DNA of 64,000 nt from Dyella amyloliquefaciens. GTDB lineage: Bacteria; Pseudomonadota; Gammaproteobacteria; Xanthomonadales; Rhodanobacteraceae. The stretch is taken from NCBI RefSeq assembly GCF_004296575.1, contig NZ_SAYT01000005.1:558001-622000 (forward strand), in the 5' to 3' direction. The stretch's first letter is position 1. Every line of letters begins with the position of its first letter. The notes beneath the pieces were generated by a model. That model did no database searches and was not told where the DNA came from. It was given only the letters and a program-made list of their open reading frames with translations. The position numbers and the translations under genes are program-made. Shown here one piece after another: positions 2,717 through 55,673 of this stretch.

Positions 2717-3831
<1,115 letters not shown>

Positions 3832-4022
3832 TTAAAACCAAAAATTAATGTAATGGCAACGGCCTACGAGCTTTTTCTCGACTCATTCGCGTGACGGCAT
3901 CCACACTTGGCCGAACTTGTCGATGGCCTGTTTCTTGCTGTGATGTGCTCGGTTCATGCCTGAGATACTGCTACATCTATACTCTGAGTTGTTTTGACTC
4001 ACGTCTCGCTAACACCCAAACC

Positions 4023-10169: not shown

Positions 10170-10262
10170 GGAGAGTCTGTTCGTCTTAGGGGGTAGTTAG
10201 CTTAGGCCGTTGGGCGCGAGGCGCAAGGGCTGACCGCGATGGCCGACAGCACGACGTCGGCG

Positions 10263-41135: not shown

Positions 41136-41158
41136 AACAAAAACTATCGTTTGAACAT
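41136..41158 (+). promoter_or_regulatory. Shared upstream element, copy 1 (before citE-like gene)
   Basis: AACAAAAACTA-N5-TGAACAT, A/T-rich against its surroundings, 81 nt before the citE-like ATG. The same two blocks with the same spacing occur at 45569-45591. A common operator or promoter for the accessory locus, perhaps for its LysR regulator, is the simplest reading. Confidence 0.45.
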
Positions 41159-41238
41159 GCTGCGTTCGCTCGATTCACGCAGTATCCGTCACGCACACTC
41201 GTCCGCACCGAACAATACGGCGACAGACGGACCCATTG

Positions 41239-42090
41239 ATGCGCAGCAAGCTTTTCGTTCCCGGGTCCCGTCCGGAACTGTTCGCCAAGGCGCTTGCCGG
41301 TAACGCCGATGCGCTGTCGCTGGATCTCGAGGACTCCGTGTTACCTGCCCTCAAGCAGGAAGCGCGCGAGTGCGTGGGCGAGTTCGTGAGCTCGCCGGCG
41401 GTAAGCGCGGCGGCGAAGCTGATCATCGTGCGGGTCAACGCACCGGATTCGGAGCACTTTCAGGCGGACGTGCACGCGGTCGCACGCCAGGGCCTGACCA
41501 TGCTCAACCTGCCCAAGATCGAATCAGCCTGCGACCTGCTCGAGGCGGTCGCCGTCATCGAGCGTGCCGAAGCGGCCAATCACGTGCATGAGCCTATCCG
41601 CCTGCTGGTGAACGTCGAAACACCGCTGGCACTGGCCCATGCCGCTGCCATCGCGTCGGCACACCCGCGTGTCGCGGGACTGCAGCTTGGCTTGGCCGAC
41701 CTGTTCGAGGCACAGGGCATCGCTCGCCGCGACACGGCGAACGTGCACGCCGCGATGTTTGCCGTGAAGATGGCGGCAGCACAGTCGAGCGTGTTCGCCA
41801 TCGACGGCGCGTTCGCCGATATGGAAGACAGTGACGGTTTCACAGCGGAAGCCGCCATGGCACGACGCCTGGGTTTTACCGGCAAGAGCTGCATCCATCC
41901 GCGCCAGGTGGCGCTGGCGAATGCGGCGTTCGCACCGACCGAAGCCGAACTGTCCGCTGCGCGACGCATTGTCGAAGCGGCACACCGCGCGGAACACGCG
42001 GGGCACGGAGCCTTCGTGTTGGATGGCAAAATGATCGACCTGCCGTTTCTCAAGCGCGCGCAGGCCATGTTGGCAGCAGTGGAGCGATGA
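41239..42090 (+). CDS. CitE-like lyase/aldolase (HpcH/HpaI superfamily)
   Basis: Member of the citrate-lyase-beta-like family that cleaves or forms C-C bonds of acyl-CoA substrates such as citramalyl-CoA, malyl-CoA or related beta-hydroxyacyl-CoA. The 283-residue product begins MRSKLFVPGSRPELFAKAL, the family start with the phosphate-binding PGSRPE. It has SLDLEDSV, the catalytic-site Arg in IIVRVN, the metal ligands Glu in VNVETPLAL and Asp in LGLADLF, and GKSCIHPRQV near the end. It is short, like stand-alone CitE proteins, not citrate lyase complexes (no CitD/F nearby). It overlaps the symporter gene by 4 nt. Substrate unknown. Confidence 0.85.
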   Translation: MRSKLFVPGSRPELFAKALAGNADALSLDLEDSVLPALKQEARECVGEFVSSPAVSAAAKLIIVRVNAPDSEHFQADVHAVARQGLTMLNLPKIESACDLLEAVAVIERAEAANHVHEPIRLLVNVETPLALAHAAAIASAHPRVAGLQLGLADLFEAQGIARRDTANVHAAMFAVKMAAAQSSVFAIDGAFADMEDSDGFTAEAAMARRLGFTGKSCIHPRQVALANAAFAPTEAELSAARRIVEAAHRAEHAGHGAFVLDGKMIDLPFLKRAQAMLAAVER

Positions 42091-44513
42091 TGGGCATGTG
42101 GGGGCAGGCAACGCCGCGGGGGCGGAAGAACACCAGCGCAACGGATCTGTGGTTTGCAAAACTGCTTGCCGTCCTGCTCCTGTTCTCGGGCTTCCCTGCG
42201 ACGGCCGATACCCTGACGCCGATGCGCGCAAGCTCCCTGCCGGTCCCGGCCGCGCAAGCCATTCGGTCGTTGGTCGTCGTTGACGGGCATCCCATCGCCC
42301 TCACCGATCGGGGAGTCGCCGGCTACAACGACCAGCAATGGCGGACGTTGCGGTGGGCGTCCCCTGATGCGACCTCCCAGGTAGCCGCACTATTCGGGAG
42401 TAACCGCCAGGGCTACGCGCTGCTCGGCAGCACCACGGCTGTCACGGGCGTGGCACGCCTGTCATTGCATGGTGACGTGCTTTCGCTCGAACCGCTGCCC
42501 GCACTGCCGCAGGCCATCGCACACGGACAGGCAACCGTTACCGACAACGCGGTGTTCGTCGCAGGCCAGGCACCCAACGGGACTCACCTGCTGCGACTTC
42601 CGCTGGACGTCACTTCAGCGCAGTGGACGGACCGGGCAGGTTGGCCCGGAAACACCGAAGCCACGTCGATCACGGTCCAGAACGCCGGTGCATTCGTTAC
42701 CGTGGCGCGAGCAGATGGCCACGAGCAGCTGTGGCAGGCAGCCAACGACGGAACCTGGAAAGATCGCGGCAACGTGCCCGGCACCATAGTGGCCTCATCC
42801 GCGCGCGCGATGGGACAGGCTCATCTGATGTTCCTCCTGCGCGGATCCGACGGTGGCGTCGCACGCCCTGCCACCTTCCAGACCATCACAAGCGCCTGGA
42901 CCACCCTTCCCGGCGCTTCCGTCCTGTACCCACAGGCCACCACCGCCTGGCAGGACGGCCTGCTGTGGGCGACGGTTGCGGACGGAAAGATGGAACTCAC
43001 CTCCGCCCAGGTGCAGTCCAGCAAGCTGCTGCTGCGTTGGCTGGATTGGATCGTCATCGTGGTCTACCTCGCCGCGATGATCGGCATCGGTCTGTACTTC
43101 TACGTGCGCGAGAAGCGCAATTCCACCTCGAGCTTCTTCGTTGGCGGCCGCAGCATCCCGTTCTGGGCAGCGGGCGTTAGCCTGTATGCAGCCAATACCA
43201 GCTCGATCAGCTTCATCGCTATTCCAGCCAAGGCATTCGAGAGCAACTGGCAGTACCTCACCAACAACCTCATCGCGGTGTTCGGCCTCATGTTCGTCGC
43301 GGTATGGATCGTTCCACTGTTGCGCCGACTGGACCTCATGTCGGTGTTCTCGTATCTCGAGACGCGCTTCCATCCGGCCATCCGCATGCTTGCCAGCGCG
43401 CTTTGCATCCTCACCCAGATCGGCAGCCGCATGAGCGTGATCCTGTTTCTGCCGGCGCTCGCCATTGCCACCATCACGGGCATCAGTGTCACCTGGAGCG
43501 TGATCCTGATGGGTGGATTCACCATCATCTATACCGCCATGGGCGGCATGAAGGCGGTGATATGGACGGATTTCGTACAGGTTATCGTGAAAATGGGCGG
43601 CGCCATCTTCGCCATCGGCTTCATCGTGTGGAACCTGCACGGCGGCGTGGGCGAGTTCGTGCATACCGCCATGGCCGAGAACAAGACGAAACTGTTCGAT
43701 TTCAGCTTCGACCTCACCAAGGCGACGGTCTGGGGCTTCATCTTCCTCGTGCTGTTCGACGTAGTGCTGACTTTCCCGAAGGACCAGGTACTGATGCAGC
43801 GTGCGCTGTCCACCAAGTCGGACAAGGAAGCTGGTCGCTCGATCTGGGCATTCGCCGCGATCATGATACCCGGCGGCTTCGTGTTCTACATGATCGGCAC
43901 GGCGTTGTTCGTCTTCTACAAGACGCATCCCGAGCGCATGAACCCGCTGCTGCCGATCGATGCCACGTTTCCGCTCTTCATTGCGGCCGAGCTGCCCATG
44001 GGCGTGACCGGGCTGATCGTCGCTGGCATCTTTGCCGCAGCCATGGCGACACTGTCGGGGATCATGAACAGCGTGGCTACGCTTATCTCCGTTGACTTCT
44101 ACGACAAGCTGGTGAGTGAAGGCTCGCAGAAAAAGAGCGTGTTCTTCGCTGAAGTCATGACTGTGATGGTGGGATTGATAGGCATCGCCTCGGCGCTGTT
44201 GCTGTCTCGCTTCGACGTGCACTCGCTGTTCGACGTGTCAATCGAGCTGGCCGGCCTGCTGGGGGGCGGCTTCGCGGGTGCCTACACCCTGGGCATGTTC
44301 ACGCGCCGGGCGAACGCGCCGGGCGTGGCCATCGGCATTGGCGCCAGCATCTGCCTCACGCTGATTGCATGGTCGTACAAGCTGGTACATCCGTATTTCT
44401 ATCTGGCCATCTCGATCTTGTTGTGCATCGTGATCGGCTATCTGGCGAGCCTGTTTTTCCCGGCGCCCACGCGCTCGCTGAAAGGGCTGACGATCTACCG
44501 CGACGTGGAGTGA
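42087..44513 (+). CDS. Beta-propeller/sodium:solute symporter fusion protein
   Basis: Two-part membrane protein of 808 residues. Residues 1-42 contain a signal or first membrane helix (LLAVLLLFSGFPATA). Residues 45-310 form a periplasmic beta-rich region with repeated Trp/Gly turns. It is read here as a Kelch-like propeller of the type seen in sialate mutarotases, but the repeat is weak. From about 319 on there is a full SSS-family transporter with about 13 helices. Signatures include FFVGGRSIPFWAAGVSLYAANTSSISFIAIPAKAF (sodium-site helix 1), YTAMGGMKAVIWTDFVQ and MAAAMATLSGIMNS-like AAAMATLSGIMNSVATL. The substrate is likely a sugar or sugar acid. It is coupled to the CitE-like gene by a 4-nt overlap. 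Confidence 0.85.
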   Translation: MMGMWGQATPRGRKNTSATDLWFAKLLAVLLLFSGFPATADTLTPMRASSLPVPAAQAIRSLVVVDGHPIALTDRGVAGYNDQQWRTLRWASPDATSQVAALFGSNRQGYALLGSTTAVTGVARLSLHGDVLSLEPLPALPQAIAHGQATVTDNAVFVAGQAPNGTHLLRLPLDVTSAQWTDRAGWPGNTEATSITVQNAGAFVTVARADGHEQLWQAANDGTWKDRGNVPGTIVASSARAMGQAHLMFLLRGSDGGVARPATFQTITSAWTTLPGASVLYPQATTAWQDGLLWATVADGKMELTSAQVQSSKLLLRWLDWIVIVVYLAAMIGIGLYFYVREKRNSTSSFFVGGRSIPFWAAGVSLYAANTSSISFIAIPAKAFESNWQYLTNNLIAVFGLMFVAVWIVPLLRRLDLMSVFSYLETRFHPAIRMLASALCILTQIGSRMSVILFLPALAIATITGISVTWSVILMGGFTIIYTAMGGMKAVIWTDFVQVIVKMGGAIFAIGFIVWNLHGGVGEFVHTAMAENKTKLFDFSFDLTKATVWGFIFLVLFDVVLTFPKDQVLMQRALSTKSDKEAGRSIWAFAAIMIPGGFVFYMIGTALFVFYKTHPERMNPLLPIDATFPLFIAAELPMGVTGLIVAGIFAAAMATLSGIMNSVATLISVDFYDKLVSEGSQKKSVFFAEVMTVMVGLIGIASALLLSRFDVHSLFDVSIELAGLLGGGFAGAYTLGMFTRRANAPGVAIGIGASICLTLIAWSYKLVHPYFYLAISILLCIVIGYLASLFFPAPTRSLKGLTIYRDVE

Positions 44514-44520
44514 TACACCT

Positions 44521-44545
44521 CGCCATGGGCCGAAAGTCCATGGCG
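44521..44545. promoter_or_regulatory. Palindrome between symporter and lysR
   Basis: CGCCATGG (44521-44528) and CCATGGCG (44538-44545) form a perfect 8-bp inverted repeat with a short loop, 4 nt past the symporter stop. There is no T run, so a terminator is doubtful; a regulator site for the following lysR is possible. Confidence 0.35.
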
Positions 44546-44594
44546 ACACCGGCCGATGGTCAGGTAGGCTGCGACAAAGCAAAGGTGGTCGCAC

Positions 44595-45485
44595 GTGGAA
44601 ACCCAGTTCCTGCATACCTTCATCATCACCGTCGACCAGGGCTCGATGGCGGCGGCAGCACGCGTGCTGAACATCACTCCGGCGGCGGTGGCACAACAGA
44701 TCCGCACGCTCGAGCGCGAAATCGGCGCCACGCTGATTGCCCGCGTGGGGCGCACGGTGAGCGTCACCGAGGAAGGCTCGCGCATCCTGCAGCACTCGCG
44801 CGACCTGTTGCGGCAAGTGGCCAACCTTCGCAGCATCGCGAACGAAAGCGATGTCTCTGGCGAACTCAGGCTCGGCGCCTGCCAGACTGCGCTTGCCGGC
44901 ATGCTGCCGGACATTCTCGCGCGCATGGTTGATGCGTTTCCGCAGATCAACGTATTCATCAAGCCCGGTTTCTCGGTGGACCTCTATCGCGCCGTGGAAG
45001 ATGGCGACCTCGACGCCGCCGTGGTGTTGCAGGCGCCCTTCCCGCTGCCCAAGACCTGCGAGTGGCAGTTGCTGCGCGAAGAACCCCTGATCGTGCTGGC
45101 GCCACGCAGCATGGCCGACCGCGATCCGCACGAACTGCTGTCGACCGAGCCGCTGATCCGCTACGACCGCAACCAGTGGGGCGGCCGCCAGGCCGACGAC
45201 TACCTGCGCATCAACGGCATCAAGCCGCGCGAGCGCTTCGAACTGAATGCGCTGAACGCGATCGCAGTGATGGTGGACCGCGGGCTCGGCGTATCGCTGG
45301 TGCCTGACTGGGCGCAACCCTGGCCCGAGGGACTCGAGCTCGTGCGTATTCCGCTGCCGAATGCTGCGGTACCACGACGTATCGGCATCGTATGGGCGCG
45401 ATCGAGCGTGCGCGTGCGGCTGGTATCGGTTTTTCTGCAGGAGGCGCGAAAAGTCGCGCAAACCATCAGGAACACGACGTCGTGA
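44595..45485 (+). CDS. LysR-family transcriptional regulator
   Basis: Likely local regulator of the accessory locus. The 296-residue product begins with GTG 44595, 6 nt after AAAGGTGG. The N-terminal winged helix-turn-helix (METQFLHTFIITVDQGSMAAAARVLNITPAAVAQQIRTLERE) is followed by a LysR substrate-binding domain (about 90-290) with LRLGACQTALAGMLPDILARM and the pocket-region MVDRGLGVSLVPDW. It lies in the middle of the locus and on the same strand as its presumed targets. The effector is unknown. Confidence 0.93.
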   Translation: METQFLHTFIITVDQGSMAAAARVLNITPAAVAQQIRTLEREIGATLIARVGRTVSVTEEGSRILQHSRDLLRQVANLRSIANESDVSGELRLGACQTALAGMLPDILARMVDAFPQINVFIKPGFSVDLYRAVEDGDLDAAVVLQAPFPLPKTCEWQLLREEPLIVLAPRSMADRDPHELLSTEPLIRYDRNQWGGRQADDYLRINGIKPRERFELNALNAIAVMVDRGLGVSLVPDWAQPWPEGLELVRIPLPNAAVPRRIGIVWARSSVRVRLVSVFLQEARKVAQTIRNTTS

Positions 45486-45568
45486 ACCTGCATGAGCTGC
45501 GCGCGGAGCAGCTCGATCGAAGCAGTTTATTTGCTGCGTCGCGACACATTTTTGCTTGGTTCGTAAGC

Positions 45569-45591
45569 AACAAAAACTAGTCTCTGAACAT
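45569..45591 (+). promoter_or_regulatory. Shared upstream element, copy 2 (before TonB receptor)
   Basis: Same AACAAAAACTA-N5-TGAACAT pattern as 41136-41158 (19 of 23 bases agree), 195 nt before the TonB-receptor ATG. It lies in the 301-bp gap 45486-45786, which otherwise shows no gene. Confidence 0.45.
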
Positions 45592-45786
45592 AGGACGCGC
45601 CGGTTATATGTGGACTGCGTCGCGAGATAGGCTCGCCTTCAGCAACAAAGCGGGGCCGTCGGGACGTTGGGGAGAGAGCACGTCGCCGGCGAATCACCAC
45701 AAGCAAACGTTCCTGGCCATCCTCCGCGATGCGCCGGGTGGGCATCTGCACACCCGCGGACGACTGCATAACAACGAGACCAAACG

Positions 45787-48051
45787 ATGATCAAGCCACT
45801 CACCGCAGCGATCAGCAGCCTGTTGTTGTTCTCCGTCATGGGTTCGTGCGCCCATGCACAGGATGCCCAGGGCGCGGCGCCGGCGAACGCCAGCAGTGTC
45901 GATAAGAACAAGAAGGATGCCGACGCTGCGAAGAAGGAGAAAGTCACCAACCTGGACCAGGTCATCGTGACCGGCGTGCGCACGCCCAAGGCCGTGGACG
46001 AGATCCCCGGCGCGATCACTGTGGTGGGCAAGGCCGAGATCCAGCACACCCTGTTGGTCACCGACGATGCCACCGCCGTGCTGGCTCGCGCCGTGCCGGG
46101 CTATGCCGAATCCTCGCAGGCCATGAGCAACACCGGCGAAACGCTGCGCGGTCGCATTCCGCTCCGCCTGTTAGACGGCGTGCCCCAGGGCTCGCCGCTA
46201 CGCGAAGGTACGCGCAACGGCACCTTCACGGACATGGGCATCGTCGGCCGCGTAGAAGTGATCAACGGCCCGTCCGCCTCCGAGGGCATCGGCGCGGCGG
46301 GCGGCATCATCAACTACATCTCCAAAGTGCCGACCAAGGAAGGCAACGAAACCACCGTCACCATGCGTTACTCGACGCAGGGACCGCGCGACAGCGGCGG
46401 CTGGAAGACCGGCGTGACCTTCACCCGCAAGGAAGATTCATACGACCTGCTGCTGTCCGGCTCGCACATCGACCGCGGTGTCACCTATGACGGCAACGGT
46501 CGCCGCATTGGCCTCAACACCAGCGGCTCGCTGGCCGATTCGCTCTCGGACAACATCTTCCTGAAGGCCGGTTACAACTTCGGCGAAGGCAACGACCAGC
46601 GCGTCCAGGCCTCCTACAGCCACTTCAAGATCGACGGCAAGGGCGACTACTACCAGGTGCTGGGCTGCCGTGGTCCCACCGACGATCCGCCGTGCGCCGT
46701 GCCGCGCACCAATACGTCGGAAAAGGGACATATCTACGGCTCGAAGGACGCCTTCAACGACTTCGAGCAGTACGCGGTGGAGTACACCCACAACAAGCTG
46801 TTTGGCGGCGCGCTGGACATCAACGTGTACCAGGCCAACCAGGCCATGCGCTACCTGCCCGAGCTCACCGACGACAAGCAGGACCCACTGATCGCGCCGT
46901 TGGGCACGCTGTGGGACCAGTCGGAGATCCGCGCCAAGAAGAAAGGCATCCGCACCTCGTGGACGCGCCCCGACCTGTTCCTCACCGGACTGGAGCTGCA
47001 CGTGGGCGTGGACTACGTGAAGGATCAGGCCGACCAGCGCCTGGCCCTGACCAATCGCTTGTGGGTGCCACCCATGAAGTACGACAGCACGGCGCCGTAC
47101 GCGCAGCTGTCCTATGACATCGGCCCGGTCACGCTGAGCGGCGGCATGCGCCACGAGGACGACACTCTCAAAGTGGACAGCTACACCACCACCTACTACC
47201 GCAATCGCGTGTTCGTGCAGGGTGGCAGCCTGAATTACAAGGAAAACCTGAAGAACATCGGTGGCATCTGGCGCATCACCGACGAATGGTCCGCGTTTGC
47301 CTCCTACAGCGAGGGGTTCACGCTGCCCAACATCGGCATCCCGTTGCGCAACATCAACGTGCCGGGCCAATCGGTGGACCGCATCAGCGACCTGCAGCCG
47401 ATCATCTTCAAGAACGACGAGTTCGGCTTCAACTGGCGCGGTGACTTCGCCTCGTTCGGCGCCACGCATTACATCTCCAAGTCGCCCTTCGGCGCCTCGC
47501 TGGCTATCGATCCGCACAGCAACGATTTCATCCTGTCGCGCGCACCGGTACGCATCGAAGGCACGGAACTGACCGGCGACTGGCAGATCAACCCGACCTG
47601 GAAGATCACCGGCCTGTATTCGCACATCAAGGGTGCCACCTCGTTCTGGGCGACCGACCCGGCCGGCCGCTTCCCCGCAGGCGACCTGAAGAAGCCGATG
47701 GGCGTGCTGGACATCAACCCGGACAAGCTGGCCGGATCGGTGACCTGGAACTTCCTCGCCAACGCCGACGCCACGTTGGGTTTCACCTCACTGTTCGGCC
47801 GCCACATCTCCGGATCGGATACCCGCCCATATGACGGCGCCACCTTCAGCTACGACGAGCAGACCCACGGCTACACCCTGTGGGACCTGGGCGTGAACTA
47901 CGACATGGGTCGCAGCGGCAAACTGTCGTTCGGCGTAGAGAACCTTTTCGACAAGCAGTACATCCTTACCTGGTCGCAGCTGGCCGGTTACCAGAACTAC
48001 TGGTCGGGTCGCGGCCGCGTTACCTCGGTCACCTATTCGATCACGTTCTGA
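45787..48051 (+). CDS. TonB-dependent outer-membrane receptor
   Basis: Outer-membrane transporter that takes up a ligand using the proton-motive force through TonB. The 754-residue product has a signal peptide (about 1-24). A Lys/Asp-rich stretch then leads to a TonB-box-like LDQVIVTGVRTPKAVDEIPG, the plug domain (about 57-175, with RVEVINGPSASEGIGAAGGIINYIS), and a 22-strand-type barrel to the C-terminal Phe (VTYSITF). The closest general type is the ferric-siderophore/iron group (plug motif IVGRVEVINGPSA), but its place beside glycan genes suggests a different ligand. No FecR or ECF sigma gene is nearby. Confidence 0.92.
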   Translation: MIKPLTAAISSLLLFSVMGSCAHAQDAQGAAPANASSVDKNKKDADAAKKEKVTNLDQVIVTGVRTPKAVDEIPGAITVVGKAEIQHTLLVTDDATAVLARAVPGYAESSQAMSNTGETLRGRIPLRLLDGVPQGSPLREGTRNGTFTDMGIVGRVEVINGPSASEGIGAAGGIINYISKVPTKEGNETTVTMRYSTQGPRDSGGWKTGVTFTRKEDSYDLLLSGSHIDRGVTYDGNGRRIGLNTSGSLADSLSDNIFLKAGYNFGEGNDQRVQASYSHFKIDGKGDYYQVLGCRGPTDDPPCAVPRTNTSEKGHIYGSKDAFNDFEQYAVEYTHNKLFGGALDINVYQANQAMRYLPELTDDKQDPLIAPLGTLWDQSEIRAKKKGIRTSWTRPDLFLTGLELHVGVDYVKDQADQRLALTNRLWVPPMKYDSTAPYAQLSYDIGPVTLSGGMRHEDDTLKVDSYTTTYYRNRVFVQGGSLNYKENLKNIGGIWRITDEWSAFASYSEGFTLPNIGIPLRNINVPGQSVDRISDLQPIIFKNDEFGFNWRGDFASFGATHYISKSPFGASLAIDPHSNDFILSRAPVRIEGTELTGDWQINPTWKITGLYSHIKGATSFWATDPAGRFPAGDLKKPMGVLDINPDKLAGSVTWNFLANADATLGFTSLFGRHISGSDTRPYDGATFSYDEQTHGYTLWDLGVNYDMGRSGKLSFGVENLFDKQYILTWSQLAGYQNYWSGRGRVTSVTYSITF

Positions 48052-48123
48052 TGCACGGGTGACGGGCAGGGTTGGAACGACGCCCCACGCGAACGGGGCG
48101 TCGTCGCGAAAGCAGGAGAGTCG

Positions 48124-49407
48124 ATGATCGATGGGTACAAGCAGGGAGGCCGATGGCTCGTGACCGCCGTCATGATGCTGTGCGTGATGGCGTGCGCCAA
48201 CGCATCGCCCTGGGACGCCCCCGTCGCGGCAGCCTTCCCCACAGCGCGCTTCGGACGCCTGCATGACTACCTCAACCATGCGACCGACGCGGAGGGTTAC
48301 CTCGGCGCCGTCTCGCTGGTGATGTACGAAGGCCACATTGTCGATTGGCGGGCCTATGGCCATCGCGACCTGGGCCGCCGGGAGCCGATGCGCAGGGACG
48401 ACATCTTCCGCATCTACTCCATGACCAAGACGGTGACTTCCGTCGCCGTCATGATGCTGGTGGAGGAAGGGCGCCTTTCGCTGGAAGACCCCGTTTCGCG
48501 TTATCTCCCCGGCTTCGACGCACCCCAGGTGATGATCGGCGGCACGGCGGAGGCCCCCGTGCTCCGACCGGCCGGCAAGCCCATCACCTTGCATGCCCTG
48601 CTCACCCATACCGCCGGCTTCCCCGCGGGACTCAAGGGCGATGAGCAGGCGACCCAGCGGATGGAAGGCATCGACCCGCACGGTAGCCGCGACCTGCGCG
48701 AATTCGCCGAACGCATGAGCCATATCGCGCTGGCCGCCGATCCGGGCAGGCGATTCGGTTATGACGGCGCCTCGATCGAACTGATGGCGCGCGTCGTCGA
48801 AGTCGTCTCACAGCAGCCCTTCGATCAGTTCCTGCAGCGACGCATCTTCGCGCCACTGAAGATGCGCGACACCGGCTTCAGCGTGCCGATGGCGCAACGC
48901 CAGCGCGTCGTTGACCTCACCACCACGGACTCGCACGGCCGCCTCGTCCTGGCCGATACGAACAGCGCGCGTCATCCCGGCGAGCCGCTCAACGCCTATG
49001 CGAGCGGCGCGGGAGGCCTCTATTCCACGGCGGGCGACTACGCACGCTTCGCCCAGATGCTGCTCAACGGCGGCGCGCTCGATGGCGTGCAGCTGCTCAG
49101 CCGCAAGTCGGTCGAACTGATGATGAGCAACCATCTCACCATGCTCGATCCGCCCGTCACGCAGTTCAGCGACGCGGAAGGCTTTGGCATCGGTGGCTAC
49201 GTGGTAATCGACGCGGCGCGGCGCGGCCAGCTCGGGTCCAATGGCCAATACGGCTGGTCGGGCGCTGCTTCCACTTACTACACGATCGACCCACGGGAAA
49301 AGCTAGTCGCCATCCTTCTGCTGCAACACCTGCCACGCGAAGGCGTGCAGGAGCTTCCTCGCGTCAGCCGTCCGTTCTACAACCTGGTTTACCAATCGCT
49401 GCCATGA
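48124..49407 (+). CDS. Periplasmic serine hydrolase of the beta-lactamase/esterase (class C-like) family
   Basis: The 427-residue product has a signal peptide (about 8-27, ending ANA). It then has a serine-hydrolase fold with the SxxK catalytic motif SMTK at 99-102, within FRIYSMTKTVTSVAVMML. The second motif is Tyr-containing FGYDGASIEL (Y-D-G in place of Y-x-N). The third region, GQYGWSGAASTYYTIDPRE, replaces the KTG block. This pattern fits esterase or D-amino-peptidase-like members (EstB/DUF-type), not resistance enzymes. AGGAGAG precedes ATG 48124. It overlaps the kinase gene by 4 nt. It may remove acyl groups from the imported substrate. Confidence 0.85.
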   Translation: MIDGYKQGGRWLVTAVMMLCVMACANASPWDAPVAAAFPTARFGRLHDYLNHATDAEGYLGAVSLVMYEGHIVDWRAYGHRDLGRREPMRRDDIFRIYSMTKTVTSVAVMMLVEEGRLSLEDPVSRYLPGFDAPQVMIGGTAEAPVLRPAGKPITLHALLTHTAGFPAGLKGDEQATQRMEGIDPHGSRDLREFAERMSHIALAADPGRRFGYDGASIELMARVVEVVSQQPFDQFLQRRIFAPLKMRDTGFSVPMAQRQRVVDLTTTDSHGRLVLADTNSARHPGEPLNAYASGAGGLYSTAGDYARFAQMLLNGGALDGVQLLSRKSVELMMSNHLTMLDPPVTQFSDAEGFGIGGYVVIDAARRGQLGSNGQYGWSGAASTYYTIDPREKLVAILLLQHLPREGVQELPRVSRPFYNLVYQSLP

Positions 49408-50330
49408 ATGCCTCCAGTCCAGGATCCGTGCTCGTCATCGGCTCCGCCAATCTCGATTTCGTAGTGCGCGCTTCGCATGTCCCGGCACCGGGCGAGACGG
49501 TGCTCGGGCGCGAGTTCACCACCCATCCCGGAGGCAAGGGCGCCAACCAGGCCGTTGCCTGCGCGCGGGCCGGCGGTGCGTCCACGCGCATGCTGCTGGC
49601 CCTGGGGGATGATGCCCACGCGCTCCCTTTGGAAACCTCGCTGCGGGACGCCGGCGTGGAACTGGTGGTGATGCGCGCCAAGGCACCGACCGGGGTGGCC
49701 TTCGTGTGCCTCTCCGGTACGGCGGAAAATGCCATCACCGTGGCGCCAGGCGCCAATCTCTCGCTGCAACCGCACCATCTGCCATCGCTGACCGGCGTCA
49801 GCCACCTGCTGATGCAGCTCGAATCACCACTGGAGAGCGTCATCGCCTGGGCGCGCAGCGCGCGCGAAGCCGGGGTGGTAACGGTACTCAACGCTGCGCC
49901 GGCCCAGGCACTGTCACGCGACACCCTGGCGCTGGTGGACATTCTCATCGTCAACGAACCCGAACTGGTGCAACTCACCGGGATCCACGACCTGGATGGC
50001 GCGCTTGACTCGCTGGACAATGCTTGCGTGGTTGTCACGCTCGGCGCGCGGGGTTGCCTTGCACGCGCGAACGGCGAGCGCTTCGTGCAACCCGCGTTCG
50101 CCATCGATCCCGTCGACACCACCGGCGCGGGCGACACGTTCTGCGGCACCCTGGTGGCAGCATTAAGCCGAGGACTTCCGTTGACCGGTGCCCTGCGGCA
50201 CGCCACCGCCGCATCCGCACTGGCATGCACCCGACTGGGCGCTCAAGCTGGAGTTCCTTCGCGCGCCGAGGTCGACGCCCTGCTCGCCCGCGTGCCCACC
50301 ACGCCCGCGCACGCCCATCACGCTCCCTGA
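49404..50330 (+). CDS. Ribokinase/PfkB-family sugar kinase
   Basis: The 308-residue product matches the ribokinase type of the PfkB family. It has GSANLDFVVRASHVPAPGETVLG and the PfkB signature 1 FTTHPGGKGANQAVACARAGG. Further on are LINEPELVQLTG-like VNEPELVQLTG, the anion-hole/catalytic block DTTGAGDTFCGTLVAAL with the catalytic Asp, and a C-terminal ATP site. It presumably phosphorylates the pentose or related sugar released by the neighbouring hydrolases; ribose itself is not proven. The ATG overlaps the hydrolase stop by 4 nt. Confidence 0.88.
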   Translation: MNASSPGSVLVIGSANLDFVVRASHVPAPGETVLGREFTTHPGGKGANQAVACARAGGASTRMLLALGDDAHALPLETSLRDAGVELVVMRAKAPTGVAFVCLSGTAENAITVAPGANLSLQPHHLPSLTGVSHLLMQLESPLESVIAWARSAREAGVVTVLNAAPAQALSRDTLALVDILIVNEPELVQLTGIHDLDGALDSLDNACVVVTLGARGCLARANGERFVQPAFAIDPVDTTGAGDTFCGTLVAALSRGLPLTGALRHATAASALACTRLGAQAGVPSRAEVDALLARVPTTPAHAHHAP

Positions 50331-50350
50331 GCTTCCATAGCGATAGCCCC

Positions 50351-52534
50351 ATGACGACCGCTCCCGACTTCACCACTGCCGACGACGGCGACACCCTGCA
50401 TCCCCGCGTGGGCACCGAGTACAAGTTCTCCCACGTCACCACCGGTCGCTACCTGCCCACGCCGGGCAAGGCACCCGGTTGGCCATTCGCCGAGATCGGC
50501 CATTGGAAGATGGACGTCGACGGCACCGCCGACGACTGGATTGCCGAGCTGATCGACTGGCGCCGCGAACATCTCACGCGCATCGGCTTCGACGACGCGA
50601 ACTACCGGCGTCCCGAGCTGCAATGGGCGCAGCGCAACTTCGTGCATGCGCAGATGATGGTGGAAGATCGCTATTTCTACGACCCCGTGGCGGGCCGTTA
50701 TACGGTCGACCGCTACCTGGACGACCTGGAGGCACGCTTCGGCGGCATCGACAGCGTGCTGATCTGGTTCGTCTACCCGAATATCGGCATCGACGACCGC
50801 AACAAGACCGACCTCGCCTTCGACCTGCCCGGCGGGCTGGAAGGTTTGCGAGGTGCCGTCGCTGATTTCCATCGCCGGGGCGTGCGCGTATTCCTTCCCA
50901 CGATGCCGTGGGACAACGGCACACGGCCATCCGCGGACAACGACTGGCAGGCCATGGCGAAGCTCGTCACCGCCGTCGGCGCCGATGGCGTGAATGGCGA
51001 CACCTACAATGGCGTGCCGCGTGCCTTCTTCACCGCCTGCGACGAAACGGGACGGCCAGTGGTGCTGCAACCCGAATCCACCATCAGCGCCGAAGAGCAG
51101 CTGAACTGGAACGTGCAGAGCTGGGGAAAGAAGGCACCCAACGAAGTCATTCCGCCCGTGGCGAAGTTCAAGTGGCTGGAACCGCGCCACATGATCAACT
51201 ACGAGAACCGCTGGGGCCGCGACCGCAACCACGACCTCCAGTACATCTTCTTCAACGGCATCGGCTACAACGCCTGGGAGAACGTCTGGGGAATCTGGAA
51301 CCAGCTGACGCCGCGTGACGCCGAATCGCTGCGCCGCATTGCCGCCATAGAACGGCAGTTCGCTCCCGCCATGGTGAGCATGGCCTGGCGTCCCTACGAG
51401 CGCACACAGCAGGCGGGTGTCTTCGCCAGCCGCTTCCCACTGGATGACTACACCCTGTGGACGCTGGTGAACCGCAACGAGTACGACGTGGACGGCGAGC
51501 AGCTGGGCGTGCCGCACGTCGAAGGCACGCACTACTTCGACGTCTGGCACGGTGTGGCACTGAATCCGCGTATCACCGACGGCACGGCGCTCTTTTCGTT
51601 CCCGATGGAGGGCCGCGGCTTTGGCTGCGTCCTGGCGTTGCGGGCCGATGCCGGCATCGAAGCGCTGGATGTGTTCCTGCAGCGTGCACGCCAGTGGGCG
51701 AACACGCCGCTGCAGTCACTGTCGAAGACATGGCGATCGCTGCCGCAACACATCGTGCCGGTTCCGGCCACGACGCCGCTCGCCAAGGCGCCGGCAGGCA
51801 TGATCACCATCCCTACCGGCGACTTCGATTTCGTCGTCGGTGGCGTGGAGATCGAAGGCCAGACCTGGGAAGGCAACGACGTGCAATACCCGTGGGAGAA
51901 CAGCGCGCGCCGCCATCACCGGCATCGCATGCAGGTGCCTGCATTCCACATCGACCGCACGCCCGTCACCAACGCGCAGTTCCTCGCGTTCCTGGAAGAC
52001 ACCGGCTGGCGCCCGTCTGACGGGCACCAATTCCTGCATCACTGGCGTGACGGTGCGCCCCAGCCCGGCTGGGAGAACAGACCGGTCACCTGGGTGTCGA
52101 TCGAGGACGCGCGCGCCTACGCCGAGTGGGCGGGCAAGCGCCTGCCGCGGGAATGGGAGTGGCAATACGCGGCACAAGGCACCGACGGGCGCCTGTATCC
52201 GTGGGGCAACTGCTGGGAAGCATCGCGCGTGCCGGCCGTCCACCGCGGCCGCGTACTGACGCCACCGGCTCCTGTCGATGCGCATCCGCAGGGTGCCAGC
52301 CCATTCGGCGTGCTGGACCTGGTCGGCAACGTGTGGCAGTGGACCGACGAATTCCACGACGAGCATACGCGGTCAGCCATCCTGCGCGGCGGCAGCCACT
52401 ACCAGCCGCAGACGTCCCACTGGTATTTCCCCCAGGCCTATCGCCTCGACCAGCACGGCAAGTATCTGCTGATGGCGCCAGGAAAGGATCGCTCCGCATG
52501 CGTGGGTTTCCGCTGCGTGGTGGATGCCGCCTGA
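50351..52534 (+). CDS. Putative glycosidase-like barrel fused to a formylglycine-generating-enzyme (SUMF1) domain
   Basis: Unusual two-domain protein of 727 residues with no signal peptide. Residues 1-470 look like a (beta/alpha)8 sugar hydrolase followed by a small beta domain. Strand-like blocks with acidic ends are DSVLIWFVYPNIGIDDRN, RGVRVFLPTMPWDNG, GADGVNGDTYNG and PVVLQPESTI. I cannot assign a GH family. From about 476 on there is a clear FGE/SUMF1 fold: FHIDRTPVTNAQFLAFLEDTGW, PVTWVSIEDARAYAEWAGKRLPREWEWQYAA, YPWGNCWE, DLVGNVWQWTDEF, LRGGSHY and CVGFRCV. The pair Cys717/Cys722 has the CxxxxC spacing of the FGE copper site, so catalysis is possible. No sulfatase gene is in the window. 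Overlaps the next gene by 1 nt. Confidence 0.8.
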   Translation: MTTAPDFTTADDGDTLHPRVGTEYKFSHVTTGRYLPTPGKAPGWPFAEIGHWKMDVDGTADDWIAELIDWRREHLTRIGFDDANYRRPELQWAQRNFVHAQMMVEDRYFYDPVAGRYTVDRYLDDLEARFGGIDSVLIWFVYPNIGIDDRNKTDLAFDLPGGLEGLRGAVADFHRRGVRVFLPTMPWDNGTRPSADNDWQAMAKLVTAVGADGVNGDTYNGVPRAFFTACDETGRPVVLQPESTISAEEQLNWNVQSWGKKAPNEVIPPVAKFKWLEPRHMINYENRWGRDRNHDLQYIFFNGIGYNAWENVWGIWNQLTPRDAESLRRIAAIERQFAPAMVSMAWRPYERTQQAGVFASRFPLDDYTLWTLVNRNEYDVDGEQLGVPHVEGTHYFDVWHGVALNPRITDGTALFSFPMEGRGFGCVLALRADAGIEALDVFLQRARQWANTPLQSLSKTWRSLPQHIVPVPATTPLAKAPAGMITIPTGDFDFVVGGVEIEGQTWEGNDVQYPWENSARRHHRHRMQVPAFHIDRTPVTNAQFLAFLEDTGWRPSDGHQFLHHWRDGAPQPGWENRPVTWVSIEDARAYAEWAGKRLPREWEWQYAAQGTDGRLYPWGNCWEASRVPAVHRGRVLTPPAPVDAHPQGASPFGVLDLVGNVWQWTDEFHDEHTRSAILRGGSHYQPQTSHWYFPQAYRLDQHGKYLLMAPGKDRSACVGFRCVVDAA

Positions 52535-54363
52535 TGCCAGCACCCGTCACGCGACTCGATGGACTGCTGGGCGAAGCCCTGCGCGCCAATCTGCACGGCC
52601 GCCTTTCGCACTTCATCACCGATGAACACAGCGCCGCCATCGCGCTGTTCGCGCCAGAGCAGCGCCAAAACAATCGCGCCGGCGACTGGTACGGCGAGCA
52701 CGCCGGCAAATGGCTCTATGCGGCGGCCAAGGCGGCGGCACGTAGCGGCGACGCCACGTTGCGCGGGCATCTTTTGCGAGTGGCCGATTTCCTGGTCTCG
52801 GTGCAGGATTCCGACGGTTATCTGGGCACGTACGCAATCGACCATCGATTCATGGTGCAGCAGCCGCCCAAACTGGTGAGCTGGGACGGCGCGCCCAGCG
52901 TACGCACCTGGGACATCTGGACCCATGCTTATCTCGTGCTGGGCCTGCTGGAGGTGCACAAGCACTTTGCCGACGTGCGCTATCTCGACGCTGCACGCCG
53001 CATCGGCGACCTCTGCCTGTACACGCTGACCGAAGGCGGCATCGACATCACCGAACTCGGCAACCACTTCGGCATGTCGGCCACGGTGCTGCTGGACCCG
53101 GCGGTGGAACTGCACCTCGTCACCGGCGAGGCACGCTACCTCGAACTGGCACGCCGCATCCTCGCGCAAGCCAACGACGAACCCGACCTCGCCCTGCTCA
53201 CGCGCGCGCTCGCGGATACCGATGCCGCCTTCATTGCGACGGGCAAGGCCTACCAGCTCGCATGGAACCTGGTGGGCCTGGCCAAGCTCTATCGCGCCAC
53301 CGGCGAGCACGACTACCGCGTAGCGGTGGACAACCTCTGGCGCAGCATCCGCGAGAAGCACCTCACCCTCGGCGGCGGCCCCTGGGGCGGCGTCGCGCAT
53401 CGGTCGCGCGAGGTATTCAATGCGCCCGGCACCTTCAGCCCGCATGCCTACGTGGAAACCTGCTCCACATTGGCCTGGATCCAACTCAACCGCGAACTGC
53501 TTGCCATCAGCGGCGAAGCACGCTACGCCGAAGAAATCGAGCGCTCGGCCTACAACGACCTGCTCGCGGCACAGGCACCCAATGGTGAGGACTGGTGCTA
53601 CTACGTCTTCCCCAATGGCAGACGCGTGCACACGACCTACTGGCGTTGCTGCAAGTCCAGCGGCGCGATGGCATTGGAAGAACTCCCGGCGATCGCCTAC
53701 GCGCATGGCGACGACACGCTCAGCGTGAATCTCTACGGCGCCGGCGAGACGCGCTTCTCGCTACGCGGCCACCAGATCACCGTGCAGCAGCAAACACGCT
53801 ATCCCTTCGACGGCGTCATCGCGCTTCGCGTGCACACCGCGGGTGTCGTGCGCTTCGCCCTGCGTCTGCGCATTCCGTCGTGGGCTACCGACGCCAGCGT
53901 GCAGGTCAACGGAGAGCCACTGGACCGCCCCCCGGCCGGCGGCAATTACGCAGAGATCGAGCGCGAATGGCGTGATGGCGATACGGTGATGCTGCAGCTA
54001 CCGATGCGCCCCTTGCTGCACCACGCCGTGAACCGCAACGTGCAGGAATCGAAGGCACCGGACGGCAGCGACGTGAAGCAGGAAGTGCTGCGCTTCGAAT
54101 ACATCGGCATCACCTGCGGGCCGCTCGTCTACGCCACCGGCCTGATCGACGGCTTCAAGGTCGAGGAGACGGTGCGGCTGCCCGAGGGAAACCCGGACCG
54201 ATGGCTGAGCTTCCATCCAGGCGCGACGGACGCGACGCCGATGGTAAGCCTCGACCTGGGCTACCGGCCGCCGTTGGAATTCACGCCGTATTTCTGCGCC
54301 GGCGGACGCGTGGACGGTGCCTGGCGTCTTGCCTGGCTGCCCCTGGCGCCGCAGCTGCCCTGA
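52534..54363 (+). CDS. GH127-family glycosidase (beta-L-arabinofuranosidase type, DUF1680)
   Basis: Likely cytoplasmic glycosidase; the founding enzyme of the family, HypBA1 of Bifidobacterium, cleaves beta-L-arabinofuranosides. ATG 52534 overlaps the previous stop as TGATG and gives a 609-residue product without a signal peptide. An (alpha/alpha)6 barrel is indicated by blocks such as EHAGKWLYAAAKAAARSGD, SVQDSDGYLGTY, THAYLVLGLLEVHKHFADVRYLDAARR and TGGxF-type FNAPGTFSPHAYVETC. The zinc/nucleophile set of GH127 is conserved: Glu308 and Cys310 in VETC, and Cys372-Cys373 in YWRCC. A C-terminal beta-sandwich follows. Sugar specificity is by family only. Confidence 0.87.
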   Translation: MPAPVTRLDGLLGEALRANLHGRLSHFITDEHSAAIALFAPEQRQNNRAGDWYGEHAGKWLYAAAKAAARSGDATLRGHLLRVADFLVSVQDSDGYLGTYAIDHRFMVQQPPKLVSWDGAPSVRTWDIWTHAYLVLGLLEVHKHFADVRYLDAARRIGDLCLYTLTEGGIDITELGNHFGMSATVLLDPAVELHLVTGEARYLELARRILAQANDEPDLALLTRALADTDAAFIATGKAYQLAWNLVGLAKLYRATGEHDYRVAVDNLWRSIREKHLTLGGGPWGGVAHRSREVFNAPGTFSPHAYVETCSTLAWIQLNRELLAISGEARYAEEIERSAYNDLLAAQAPNGEDWCYYVFPNGRRVHTTYWRCCKSSGAMALEELPAIAYAHGDDTLSVNLYGAGETRFSLRGHQITVQQQTRYPFDGVIALRVHTAGVVRFALRLRIPSWATDASVQVNGEPLDRPPAGGNYAEIEREWRDGDTVMLQLPMRPLLHHAVNRNVQESKAPDGSDVKQEVLRFEYIGITCGPLVYATGLIDGFKVEETVRLPEGNPDRWLSFHPGATDATPMVSLDLGYRPPLEFTPYFCAGGRVDGAWRLAWLPLAPQLP

Positions 54364-54467
54364 CGCGCTTACACAAGGAATTGTGCGTCGAGAAACTAGC
54401 TGCGGCAGCTTCTTCTTTCACACCCCCTGTTGCAGAGTGAATCTCCGCATGGGGCACCTGGAATCGA

Positions 54468-55673
54468 GTGAATACGCAACGCATGGAAACCCTTTCGCCT
54501 GAGTCGAACGCGGCACCCCGCGGCCATGCCGGCCCTCTCGCAGGCATCCGCGTGCTGGACCTGAGCGCCTACATCGCCGGTCCCTACGGGTGCACGCTGC
54601 TGGCTGACCAGGGTGCCGACGTGATCAAGATCGAACCGCCGGGGGGCGACAACCTGCGTCAGTATCCCTCCACGCTCGCCAGCGAGAGCCGTGCGTTCCT
54701 CGGCGTCAATCGCAGCAAGCGCGGCATCGTGCTCGATCTCAAGCGCCCCGAGGACCATGCCGCGCTGCTCAAGCTCGTGCGCGATGCCGACGTGCTCGTG
54801 CACAACTTCCGCCCTGGTGTCGCCGAGCGCCTGGGCATCGACCACGATCGCCTCAATCTCATCAATCCTCGCCTGATCTACTGCGCCCTTACCGGCTACG
54901 GCGAGGCCGGCCCGATGAAGGACAAGGCCGGCTACGACCAGGTGCTGCAGACCATGACCGGCATGTGCGCGCTGCAGGGCAAGCGCGGCGGTCCGCCGGA
55001 AGTGATCTTCGGGTCGGTGGTCGACTACTACGCGGCTGCCCTGCTTGCCGCCGGCGTGGCTTCTGCGTTGTTCGAACGGGAGCGCAGCGGGCTCGGGCAA
55101 TTCGTGGGTGTGTCGCTGCTACGCAGCGCGTTGACCATGCAGTCCGCGCGCATGATCTGGGCAGAAGGCGAGTCGCTCGACATCGGCCGCGACATGCGCT
55201 CGGGCGGGGTCACCGGCATCCATCCTACGCGCGATGGCTACATCTACATCTCTGCGAACACGCCGCATTTCTGGCGCGCGCTATGCGAGAAGACGGGACT
55301 GAAAAGTCTGCGCGACGACTCCCGCTACGATACCGTGCGCAAACGCGCGGAGCATTACAGCGAGATCGTGCCGCAGCTGCACGAGGCATTGTCCACGCGC
55401 AGCGCACTGGAATGGGAGGCGCTGTTCGGCGACGAAGTGCCCAGCGCGGCCGCACGTCGGATCGAAGACATGTTCGAGCATCCGCAGGTGCTGGCCGAAG
55501 GCATGATCGACACGTTCAGGCATCCTGCCGTGGGCCACTATCGCGGCGTCGCGCATCCGATCAAGTTCGGACGCACGCCTGGGCCGCAGGCTTTCGCCGC
55601 GCCGGCACTTAATCAGGACGGCGCCGAGATCCTCACCTCAATAGGCGCGTTCGTGCCCAGGGCCGAGGACTGA
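54468..55673 (+). CDS. Class III CoA-transferase (CaiB/BaiF family)
   Basis: Moves CoA between carboxylic acids without a covalent carrier protein. The 401-residue product (GTG 54468, or ATG 54483) has the opening PLAGIRVLDLSAYIAGPYGCTLLADQGADVIKIEPPGGD, the FLGVNRSKRGIVLDLKRPE block, NFRPGVAERLGID, and FGSVVDYYAAALLAAGVASAL, which holds the catalytic Asp of the family. Close relatives act on formate/oxalate, carnitine, succinate/mesaconate or citramalate. With a CitE-like lyase in the same locus, a C4-C5 dicarboxylate such as citramalate is attractive but unproven. The gene lies 104 nt after GH127; a small CACAA/TTGTG palindrome sits between. Confidence 0.88.
   Translation: MNTQRMETLSPESNAAPRGHAGPLAGIRVLDLSAYIAGPYGCTLLADQGADVIKIEPPGGDNLRQYPSTLASESRAFLGVNRSKRGIVLDLKRPEDHAALLKLVRDADVLVHNFRPGVAERLGIDHDRLNLINPRLIYCALTGYGEAGPMKDKAGYDQVLQTMTGMCALQGKRGGPPEVIFGSVVDYYAAALLAAGVASALFERERSGLGQFVGVSLLRSALTMQSARMIWAEGESLDIGRDMRSGGVTGIHPTRDGYIYISANTPHFWRALCEKTGLKSLRDDSRYDTVRKRAEHYSEIVPQLHEALSTRSALEWEALFGDEVPSAAARRIEDMFEHPQVLAEGMIDTFRHPAVGHYRGVAHPIKFGRTPGPQAFAAPALNQDGAEILTSIGAFVPRAED

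What the first reader, a model, noticed from the sequence alone, without database searches (positions are those of the whole stretch)
41136..55673. Uncharacterised utilisation locus joining TonB uptake, glycosidases, a propeller-symporter and CoA chemistry
Nine plus-strand genes, most overlapping or closely spaced, combine functions that rarely occur together: CitE-like lyase, propeller/SSS symporter, LysR, TonB receptor, periplasmic SxxK hydrolase, PfkB kinase, barrel/FGE fusion, GH127 and a CaiB-type CoA-transferase. What is seen: the families and the tight coupling (4-nt, 1-nt overlaps). Known: GH127 acts on beta-L-arabinofuranosides; CitE and CaiB proteins handle CoA esters of small dicarboxylic acids. 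Inference: the locus takes up an acylated glycoconjugate, frees the acid in the periplasm or cytoplasm, phosphorylates the sugar and activates the acid as a CoA ester. No sulfatase, classic isomerase or full sugar pathway is present, so the substrate is open.
Basis: partly seen in the sequence, partly recalled or inferred. Interest (0 to 1): 0.72.

Follow-up and report, generated by a model that had tools for sequence, protein, structure and literature searches.

The report
Regulon for eating an acidic furanoside
Nine neighbouring genes in a soil-type bacterium form what looks like one co-regulated system that imports an ester-bearing acidic sugar conjugate and takes it apart; the exact nutrient is unknown, and one of its enzymes may found a new sugar-cleaving family.

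Summary
In detail: nine plus-strand genes at 41236-55673, families and overlaps as described. They are one system. In 299 genomes of the order, the barrel/FGE gene, this GH127 clade and this CoA-transferase clade each occur in 30, the same 30. Of 46 long relative loci with the CoA-transferase, 37-46 keep each other gene, even reshuffled in Massilia. New here: an element, AAAAACTA-N5-TGAACAT, precedes both citE and the TonB gene; these are the only exact matches in the 4.83-Mb genome. It is absent in the four Massilia loci, which have LacI in place of LysR; in another genus it precedes an esterase on another contig. So the two units are very probably one LysR regulon.
Mechanism (inferred): TonB uptake, periplasmic ester cleavage, SiaT-like symport of a carboxylated glycoside, cytosolic cleavage by a GH13-like/FGE enzyme without Pfam barrel model and a divergent GH127 (usual His is Lys), ribokinase-type phosphorylation, CoA activation and cleavage of a hydroxy-diacid. 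Ribose is the best guess for the sugar, from ribosyl-hydrolase and ribokinase families near the barrel gene in relatives. Substrate unproven.

The parts
41139..41158 (+). operator copy 1, AAAAACTATCGTTTGAACAT, upstream of citE; probable LysR site
   Evidence: same element upstream of citE in 32 of 51 loci (<=3 mismatches of 14 bases; 1.2% in shuffles); one of two exact matches in the genome
41236..42090 (+). CitE-like CoA-ester lyase (HpcH/HpaI)
   Evidence: PF03328, 137 bits; closest solved relatives malyl-CoA lyases, 148 and 146 bits; below the cut-offs of citE and RipC
42087..44513 (+). Na+ symporter of the SiaT type with an N-terminal, weakly NanM-like propeller-type domain
   Evidence: SiaT (5nv9) 260 bits, next 159; SiaT carboxylate-binding Arg135 aligns with R448
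44595..45485 (+). LysR-type regulator
   Evidence: highest share of conserved positions among the eight proteins aligned; element absent in the Massilia loci that lack it
45572..45591 (+). operator copy 2, AAAAACTAGTCTCTGAACAT, upstream of the TonB receptor gene
   Evidence: 49 of 55 loci (0.5% in shuffles)
45787..48051 (+). TonB-dependent outer-membrane receptor
   Evidence: PF00593, PF07715; no solved relative at 1e-10
48124..49407 (+). SxxK hydrolase, probably an exported esterase (family VIII, label recalled)
   Evidence: PF00144, 229 bits; closest solved relatives a carboxylesterase (4ivi) and 'beta-lactamase domain' proteins, all about 215 bits; signal peptide judged by eye
49404..50330 (+). 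PfkB kinase, ribokinase-like
   Evidence: TIGR02152 258 bits, cut-off 300; best solved ribokinase 217 bits
50351..52534 (+). barrel/FGE fusion: GH13-like TIM barrel (candidate D217, E242) plus FGE-fold domain; core gene of the family
52534..54363 (+). divergent GH127 glycosidase with Cys/Zn-type site kept and K238 in place of His
54468..55673 (+). family III (CaiB) CoA-transferase
   Evidence: PF02515, 392 bits; closest solved relative succinate--hydroxymethylglutarate CoA-transferase, 192 bits

Best explanation
The locus is a single LysR-controlled catabolic regulon with its own TonB receptor, of the kind called CUT loci in Xanthomonas. It takes up an esterified glycoside that carries a carboxylate. 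Best-supported chain: (1) the TonB receptor carries it across the outer membrane; (2) an exported serine esterase (SxxK here, PF00756-type elsewhere) removes the ester; (3) a SiaT-like Na+ symporter with a periplasmic propeller imports the carboxylated glycoside; (4) two cytosolic glycosidases, the GH13-like/FGE enzyme and the divergent GH127, free the furanose, most likely D-ribose, and the hydroxy-acid aglycone; (5) the ribokinase-like PfkB phosphorylates the sugar; (6) CaiB moves CoA onto the acid, probably from succinyl-CoA, and the CitE-like lyase splits the 3-hydroxyacyl-CoA into acetyl-CoA and a 2-oxo acid (malate- or citramalate-type). Shown by sequence and comparison: gene set, joint inheritance, shared upstream element, families, conserved GH127 site residues. 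Inferred: that LysR binds the element, cell location and order of steps, ribose, the nature of the acid.
For: Same 30 of 299 genomes for three of the genes. 44 of 52 loci of 22 kb or more hold at least 8 of the 9 genes, also in Massilia in another order. Shared element upstream of citE (32 of 51) and TonB (49 of 55), against 1.2% and 0.5% in shuffles; upstream of the other seven genes 3 of 378 in all, all three at the 3-mismatch limit, two of them on the other strand; only two exact genomic matches; an extra exact site in G027 and G284 precedes a PF00756-type esterase. SiaT match with Arg135 equal to R448, where SMVT, vSGLT and NIS have Tyr, Asn, Tyr. Ribose: kinases at the locus pass the TIGR02152 ribokinase cut-off in 7 of 9 relatives tested. 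Within about 10 kb of the barrel gene: ADP-ribosylglycohydrolase-type proteins (Pfam-tested in L117 and L125; by cluster in L106, L112, L113, L122) and nucleoside-hydrolase-type proteins (Pfam-tested in L129; L133 by weak NCBIfam matches; L135 by cluster). Permease-like gene next to the kinase and a barrel enzyme with a signal peptide (by eye) in L129, L134, L136, L140. CaiB directly beside CitE in L108 and Massilia. A branched-chain-amino-acid-type ABC importer upstream of the barrel gene in Variovorax L109.
Against: The window's kinase is below the ribokinase cut-off (258 of 300 bits), as is that of Roseateles L077, the tested relative most like it (252); against a second ribokinase model only 1 of 9 passes. 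PfkB is below threshold in 9 of 46 long loci, one of which (L106) has a weaker copy. The ADP-ribosylglycohydrolase, nucleoside hydrolase and permease-like proteins are below NCBIfam equivalog cut-offs or without a match. DUF2961 (GH172-type, label recalled) proteins in the loci of L125 (Pfam-tested), L126, L132 and L135 (by cluster) fit fructose or D-arabinose as well. CitE and CaiB are below every equivalog cut-off, so the acid is a guess. The element is missing at this threshold upstream of citE in 15 of 46 loci that have LysR. At up to 2 mismatches the own genome gives 4 matches and the reversed control 2. Paper searches for such a glycoside or enzyme set returned none (26, 87: no paper) or nothing relevant among the 15 of 164 listed (47). 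No expression or enzyme data here.
Confidence: 0.5

Rival explanations
1. The substrate is a nonulosonic (sialic-acid-like) or other keto sugar acid: the propeller acts as mutarotase, the symporter imports the free acid and the CitE-like protein is a sugar-acid aldolase.
For: Symporter closest to SiaT, N-terminal domain weakly NanM-like.
Against: One search shows no lyase, epimerase or kinase of the sialic acid route among the nine genes. CitE matches CoA-ester lyases and sits with a CoA-transferase. Neither glycosidase is of a sialidase family. SiaT's Thr58, Thr63, Phe78 and Gln82 are Asn, Ser, Tyr and Asn here (read).
Confidence: 0.13
2. A beta-L-arabinofuranoside locus, as the first reader's GH127 lead suggests (acylated arabinofuranosides of plant walls).
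For: GH127 domains with acid E293 and E308, C310, C372, C373 kept.
Against: The His invariant in 16 of 16 paralogues is Lys; the clade stands far from another GH127 in the same genome (30% identity); no arabinose isomerase in the locus (the rest of the genome was not searched for one); a ribokinase-like kinase instead; Neomarinimicrobiota and some alphaproteobacterial loci have the barrel enzyme without GH127.
Confidence: 0.12
3. A sucrose-like glycosyl furanoside: the GH13-like enzyme cleaves an alpha-glycosyl furanoside such as a fructofuranoside and PfkB is a fructokinase-like enzyme, in the manner of the Xanthomonas sux locus (recalled).
For: GH13 folds are the best matches of the barrel; DUF2961 proteins in four relative loci.
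Against: PfkB matches ribokinase at 258 bits and fructokinase at 79; nucleoside hydrolases and ADP-ribosylglycohydrolases are not fructosidases; this leaves CitE and CaiB without a role.
Confidence: 0.12
4. Two functional modules (acid catabolism; glycoside catabolism) are kept as neighbours by descent without serving one substrate.
For: The 19 loci L121 and L123-L140 (mostly Acidobacteria and alphaproteobacteria by record title), and Neomarinimicrobiota L112 and L113, show the barrel gene, in part with a PfkB, but no CitE, CaiB or TonB match of this type.
Against: Shared element, rearranged but nearly complete Massilia loci, strict co-occurrence in the order.
Confidence: 0.08

Closest known systems
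CUT loci of Xanthomonas (carbohydrate utilisation with TonB-dependent receptor; sux locus)
   Same: TonB receptor, inner-membrane symporter, glycosidase and regulator in one locus (class and sux details recalled; PMC1790865 seen only as a search listing with the start of its abstract)
   Different: Adds an acid branch (CoA-transferase plus CoA-ester lyase), a SiaT-like transporter and two glycosidases of unknown specificity; regulator is LysR, but LacI-type in the Massilia loci
Itaconate degradation cluster (Ict, Ich, Ccl; PMC12290011, passages seen)
   Same: CoA-transferase plus (S)-citramalyl-CoA lyase; that the lyase is of the CitE family is recalled and fits the RipC match
   Different: No itaconyl-CoA hydratase among the nine genes; CitE 151 bits against the RipC cut-off of 375. 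The paper notes a second C. necator lyase homologue beside a CoA-transferase without hydratase, which it takes not to be involved in itaconate use
GH127 (HypBA1, aceric acid hydrolase)
   Same: Domains, acid Glu, Cys-rich site
   Different: His to Lys in the putative sugar site; far below the aceric acid hydrolase cut-off (134 of 950 bits)
GH13 alpha-amylase family (clan GH-H)
   Same: Barrel fold; an invariant Asp after strand 4 and Glu after strand 5 at positions like the catalytic pair (catalytic positions recalled)
   Different: 9-13% identity in the 50 matches listed, no Pfam match of the window's barrel at E 1, fused to an FGE-fold domain
SiaT sialic acid symporter and NanM
   Same: Closest solved transporter; Arg for carboxylate kept
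   Different: Fused in one polypeptide; four other ligand residues differ; NanM match below cut-off

Membership tests
CUT-type TonB locus | TonB receptor co-inherited with transporter and glycosidase genes | tested here: met
CUT-type TonB locus | joint expression on a substrate | not testable with these tools
   only a shared upstream element was shown
GH127 | Pfam catalytic domain above cut-off; acid Glu, Glu-x-Cys and Cys-Cys site | tested here: met
   (145.7 bits, cut-off 24.9); roles of the residues recalled
GH127 beta-L-arabinofuranosidase | substrate-site His of classical members | tested here: not met
   K in 14 of 14 clade members compared, H in 16 of 16 paralogues; the role of this His is recalled
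Aceric acid hydrolase (NF049879) | score above cut-off 950 | tested here: not met
   133.7 bits
GH13 / clan GH-H | barrel fold with Asp nucleophile after strand 4 and Glu after strand 5 | tested here: inconclusive
   fold match (TMq about 0.5); D217 and E242 invariant in 58 of 58; no sequence family match
Formylglycine-generating enzyme | copper-binding Cys pair near the C-terminus | tested here: not met
   C722 in 58 of 58, position 717 Cys in only 14 of 58
Ribokinase (TIGR02152) | score above cut-off 299.65 | tested here: not met
   window 258.4; 7 of 9 kinases at relative loci pass
Citramalyl-CoA lyase RipC (NF038242) and citrate lyase beta (TIGR01588) | scores above 375 and 443 | tested here: not met
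   151.5 and 188.3 bits
Family III CoA-transferase | PF02515 above cut-off | tested here: met
   392 bits; specificity untested, all equivalogs matched are below cut-off
Sialic acid symporter SiaT | Arg135 and the other ligand residues | tested here: inconclusive
   Arg135 and Ser60 kept; Thr58, Thr63, Phe78, Gln82 changed
Family VIII esterase | SxxK hydrolase closest to esterases, with esterase activity | tested here: inconclusive
   (esterases and beta-lactamase-domain proteins tie); activity not testable here

The most novel reading that the evidence does not exclude
The barrel/FGE protein founds a new glycosidase family that frees D-ribose from carboxylated ribofuranosides. The regulon is then the first described route for an ester-capped ribofuranosyl hydroxy-diacid, ending in ribose 5-phosphate and, by CoA transfer and retro-Claisen cleavage, acetyl-CoA plus a 2-oxo acid. 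That would imply an unrecognised natural substrate in soil, fresh water and sea.
Probability: 0.3. Interest if true: 0.75.

Novelty: new variant of a known kind. Interest (0 to 1): 0.56.

Why it matters
It gives a testable regulon with two defined upstream sites and a barrel domain without a Pfam model. The scan found 164 genome stretches that encode a relative of the barrel/FGE protein; the 80 kept come from Proteobacteria, Acidobacteria and Neomarinimicrobiota by their record titles, plus one unnamed bacterium. If the sugar is ribose, it would point to a class of ribofuranosides as a common microbial food that I found no description of; if not, the panel of assays would still assign a new glycosidase and a new GH127 specificity.

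Tried and rejected
Rejected: a sialic acid pathway (no lyase, epimerase or kinase of that route among the nine genes); itaconate degradation (no hydratase, scores below cut-offs); the FGE domain as an active formylglycine enzyme (Cys pair not kept); hydroxymethylglutarate as the acid, although CaiB's closest solved relative uses it, because CitE-family lyases act on 2-hydroxy-acid ends (recalled). Sigma-70-like promoters: none found, below the shuffled mean of 2.1; terminator-like sites 5 against 9.8 in shuffles. Rfam: none. Off-locus matches of the element other than the esterase ones: L197 (1 mismatch) lies inside a reading frame of an unrelated gene by eye; L198 (2 mismatches), L226 and L227 (1 mismatch each) show no match to the locus proteins or the esterase and were put down to chance.

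Led nowhere: paper searches returned no paper; others returned papers, none of which, from the listings, describes this locus (two papers were opened for passages; the rest seen as listings with abstract starts). TonB receptor against solved structures: no hit at 1e-10. Class-wide GH127 search: 2 of 369 genomes, one of them the window's own.

Limits: of 164 relatives found, the best 80 loci were kept by the tool, which also says that records of the window's own genome or near it may be left out. Signal peptides were judged by eye. The co-occurrence and operator p-values ignore relatedness. In Massilia 'no LysR' means no match within the 20-22 kb held; LacI was Pfam-tested in L110 only, the other three by cluster. 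Gene calls in relatives come from my own ORF picker and some starts or strands are wrong (e.g. L109, L119); many neighbour families were Pfam-tested in one member and extended by cluster.
Full report
OBSERVATION. Two refinements: the FGE domain covers only residues 483-723 of a 727-residue protein whose barrel part (residues 21-470) matches no Pfam model at E 1, and the symporter's N-terminal part is only weakly NanM-like. The closest named relative of the locus is in Dyella jiangningensis (L061). Within the genus the system is patchy: the GH127 clade is in 2 of 20 genomes.

ONE SYSTEM. A scan of genome contigs with the barrel/FGE protein gave 164 relatives, of which 80 loci were kept. Of the 52 loci of 22 kb or more, 28 hold all nine genes and 16 hold eight; given the CaiB gene (46 loci), TonB and the barrel gene are in 46, GH127 in 45, CitE and SSS in 44, LysR in 43, SxxK in 42, PfkB in 37 (my bit-score thresholds). 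In Massilia (L110, L111, L114, L119) the set is in another order and has a LacI-cluster gene instead of LysR (LacI Pfam-tested in L110). Alphaproteobacterial loci L106, L115 and L122 keep CitE, SSS, LysR, TonB, the barrel gene, CaiB and a PfkB but no GH127. In the same 299 genomes of the order, full-length barrel/FGE matches, GH127-clade matches (E up to 1e-80) and CaiB-clade matches (E up to 1e-150) occur in 30 genomes each, the same 30 (sets compared).

SHARED OPERATOR. A search for gapped words common to the citE and TonB upstream regions found one element, AAAAACTA-N5-TGAACAT in the window. With at most 3 mismatches over 14 bases of its core it precedes citE in 32 of 51 loci and TonB in 49 of 55; shuffled upstream regions reach this in 1.2% and 0.5%. 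Upstream of the other genes it was found in 0 of 49 (LysR), 0 of 50 (SSS), 0 of 43 (SxxK), 1 of 53 (PfkB), 0 of 78 (barrel), 0 of 51 (GH127) and 2 of 54 (CaiB); these three are at the 3-mismatch limit and two are on the other strand. The 32 citE and 49 TonB copies all point the same way, and the promoter regions line up in the 16 loci chosen for printing (16 lines for TonB, 7 for citE). Where citE, TonB and a same-strand LysR gene are all present, 45 of 46 loci have the TonB copy and 31 of 46 the citE copy; L108, with LysR on the other strand, has both at 3 mismatches; the four Massilia loci without LysR have neither. In the window's genome (4.83 Mb) the two sites are the only exact matches; at up to 2 mismatches there are 4 matches and the reversed control pattern has 2. 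In 19 genomes that hold the locus, 18 had a match at up to one mismatch; 32 matches are listed, 27 of them near the locus by their coordinates, and the reversed control had 1 match, in G029. In two genomes of one genus (G027, G284) an exact site lies on another contig than the locus, directly before a PF00756-type esterase with an export signal by eye (Pfam in L211) that is 47-50% identical to the esterase found inside the locus, where SxxK is missing, in Roseateles and Paucibacter (L077, L086). That is the strongest sign that ester cleavage is part of the pathway. The other off-locus matches show nothing related. That LysR binds the element is inferred.

BARREL/FGE ENZYME. AlphaFold models (pLDDT 88, pTM 0.89; barrel alone, pLDDT 88, pTM 0.91) show a TIM barrel, a beta domain and an FGE-fold domain. 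The barrel's best matches in the PDB are GH13 enzymes, TMq about 0.5 (50 rows seen, 9-13% identity). D217 after strand 4 and E242 after strand 5 are invariant in 58 of 58 sequences and are the candidate nucleophile and acid; this is by analogy. The FGE domain lacks the FGE Cys pair. By eye, the protein has no signal peptide in the window and in the Proteobacterial-type and Neomarinimicrobiota loci, but has one in most of the Acidobacterial and in some alphaproteobacterial loci.

GH127. The clade keeps E293, E308, C310, C372 and C373, but K238 replaces a His found in 16 of 16 paralogues (14 clade members compared; K238 kept in at least 95% of 45 aligned). The specificity for beta-L-arabinofuranose should not be assumed.

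THE SUGAR. Neighbours of the barrel gene outside the Proteobacterial type are informative: ADP-ribosylglycohydrolase-type proteins (Pfam in L117, L125; by cluster L106, L112, L113, L122), nucleoside-hydrolase-type proteins (Pfam in L129; weak NCBIfam matches in L133; by cluster L135; a Tat-like leader in L129 and L135 by eye), a permease-like protein beside the kinase (cluster of L129, L130, L132, L134, L135, L136, L140; tested in L129: ureide permease 59 bits, RhaT/GlcU 38 bits, below cut-off) and kinases that pass the TIGR02152 ribokinase cut-off in 7 of 9 tested (1 of 9 for a second ribokinase model). Against: DUF2961 proteins in L125 (Pfam), L126, L132 and L135 (cluster) fit other furanoses; the window's kinase and that of L077 are below the cut-off; 9 of 46 loci lack a kinase at my threshold. 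I put ribose at about one half.

THE ACID AND THE CARBOXYLATE. The symporter domain is closest to SiaT (260 bits; next 159). SiaT's Arg135, which salt-bridges the sialic acid carboxylate (PMC5931594, passages seen), aligns with R448, kept in at least 95% of the 52 locus symporters aligned; SMVT, vSGLT and NIS have Tyr, Asn and Tyr there (read). In Variovorax (L109) the barrel gene follows a branched-chain-amino-acid-type ABC importer (binding protein and one permease Pfam-tested) and a MarR regulator. Both suggest a carboxylated substrate. CaiB's closest solved relative is succinate--hydroxymethylglutarate CoA-transferase and CitE's are malyl-CoA lyases; neither reaches an equivalog cut-off. 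A hydroxyl that carried the sugar and becomes the 3-hydroxyl of the CoA ester would explain why a glycosidase locus needs a CoA-ester lyase; this is inference.

VERDICT. A real, co-inherited and very probably co-regulated catabolic system with two enzymes of unassigned specificity. Chemistry remains unproven.

Noticed in passing
L108:1455-5065; L099:2200-4500: Genes of one cluster (F62) in these two loci from metagenome assemblies; the L108 member at 2936-5065 is a sulfatase (PF00884), so the substrate may be sulfated there. The L099 member was grouped with it by similarity only.
   Followed up: partly
L087, L100, L105 between the barrel gene and GH127: A roughly 1000-1200 aa ORF is inserted inside the operon; in L105 it carries a ThuA domain.
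   Followed up: no
L125, L126: Acidobacterial loci from bog assemblies with GH13, DUF2961 and MGH1-like proteins near a barrel/FGE enzyme with a signal peptide (by eye), and an ADP-ribosylglycohydrolase in L125 (some members by cluster only).
   Followed up: partly
L127:2040-4250 and 9806-11995: Two barrel/FGE copies in one Acidobacterial contig, one beside a LacI-cluster gene.
   Followed up: no
window 59868-60509: An ORF that reads like ribose-5-phosphate isomerase A lies 4 kb downstream; by recalled motif only, not tested, probably housekeeping.
   Followed up: no
window 39480-40802 and 55699-57048: The locus is flanked by two genes that look like M24 peptidases (PepQ tested; the other by eye).
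   Followed up: no
L109:12163-14238: A gene that looks like a molybdopterin oxidoreductase follows the barrel/FGE gene in Variovorax (by eye).
   Followed up: no
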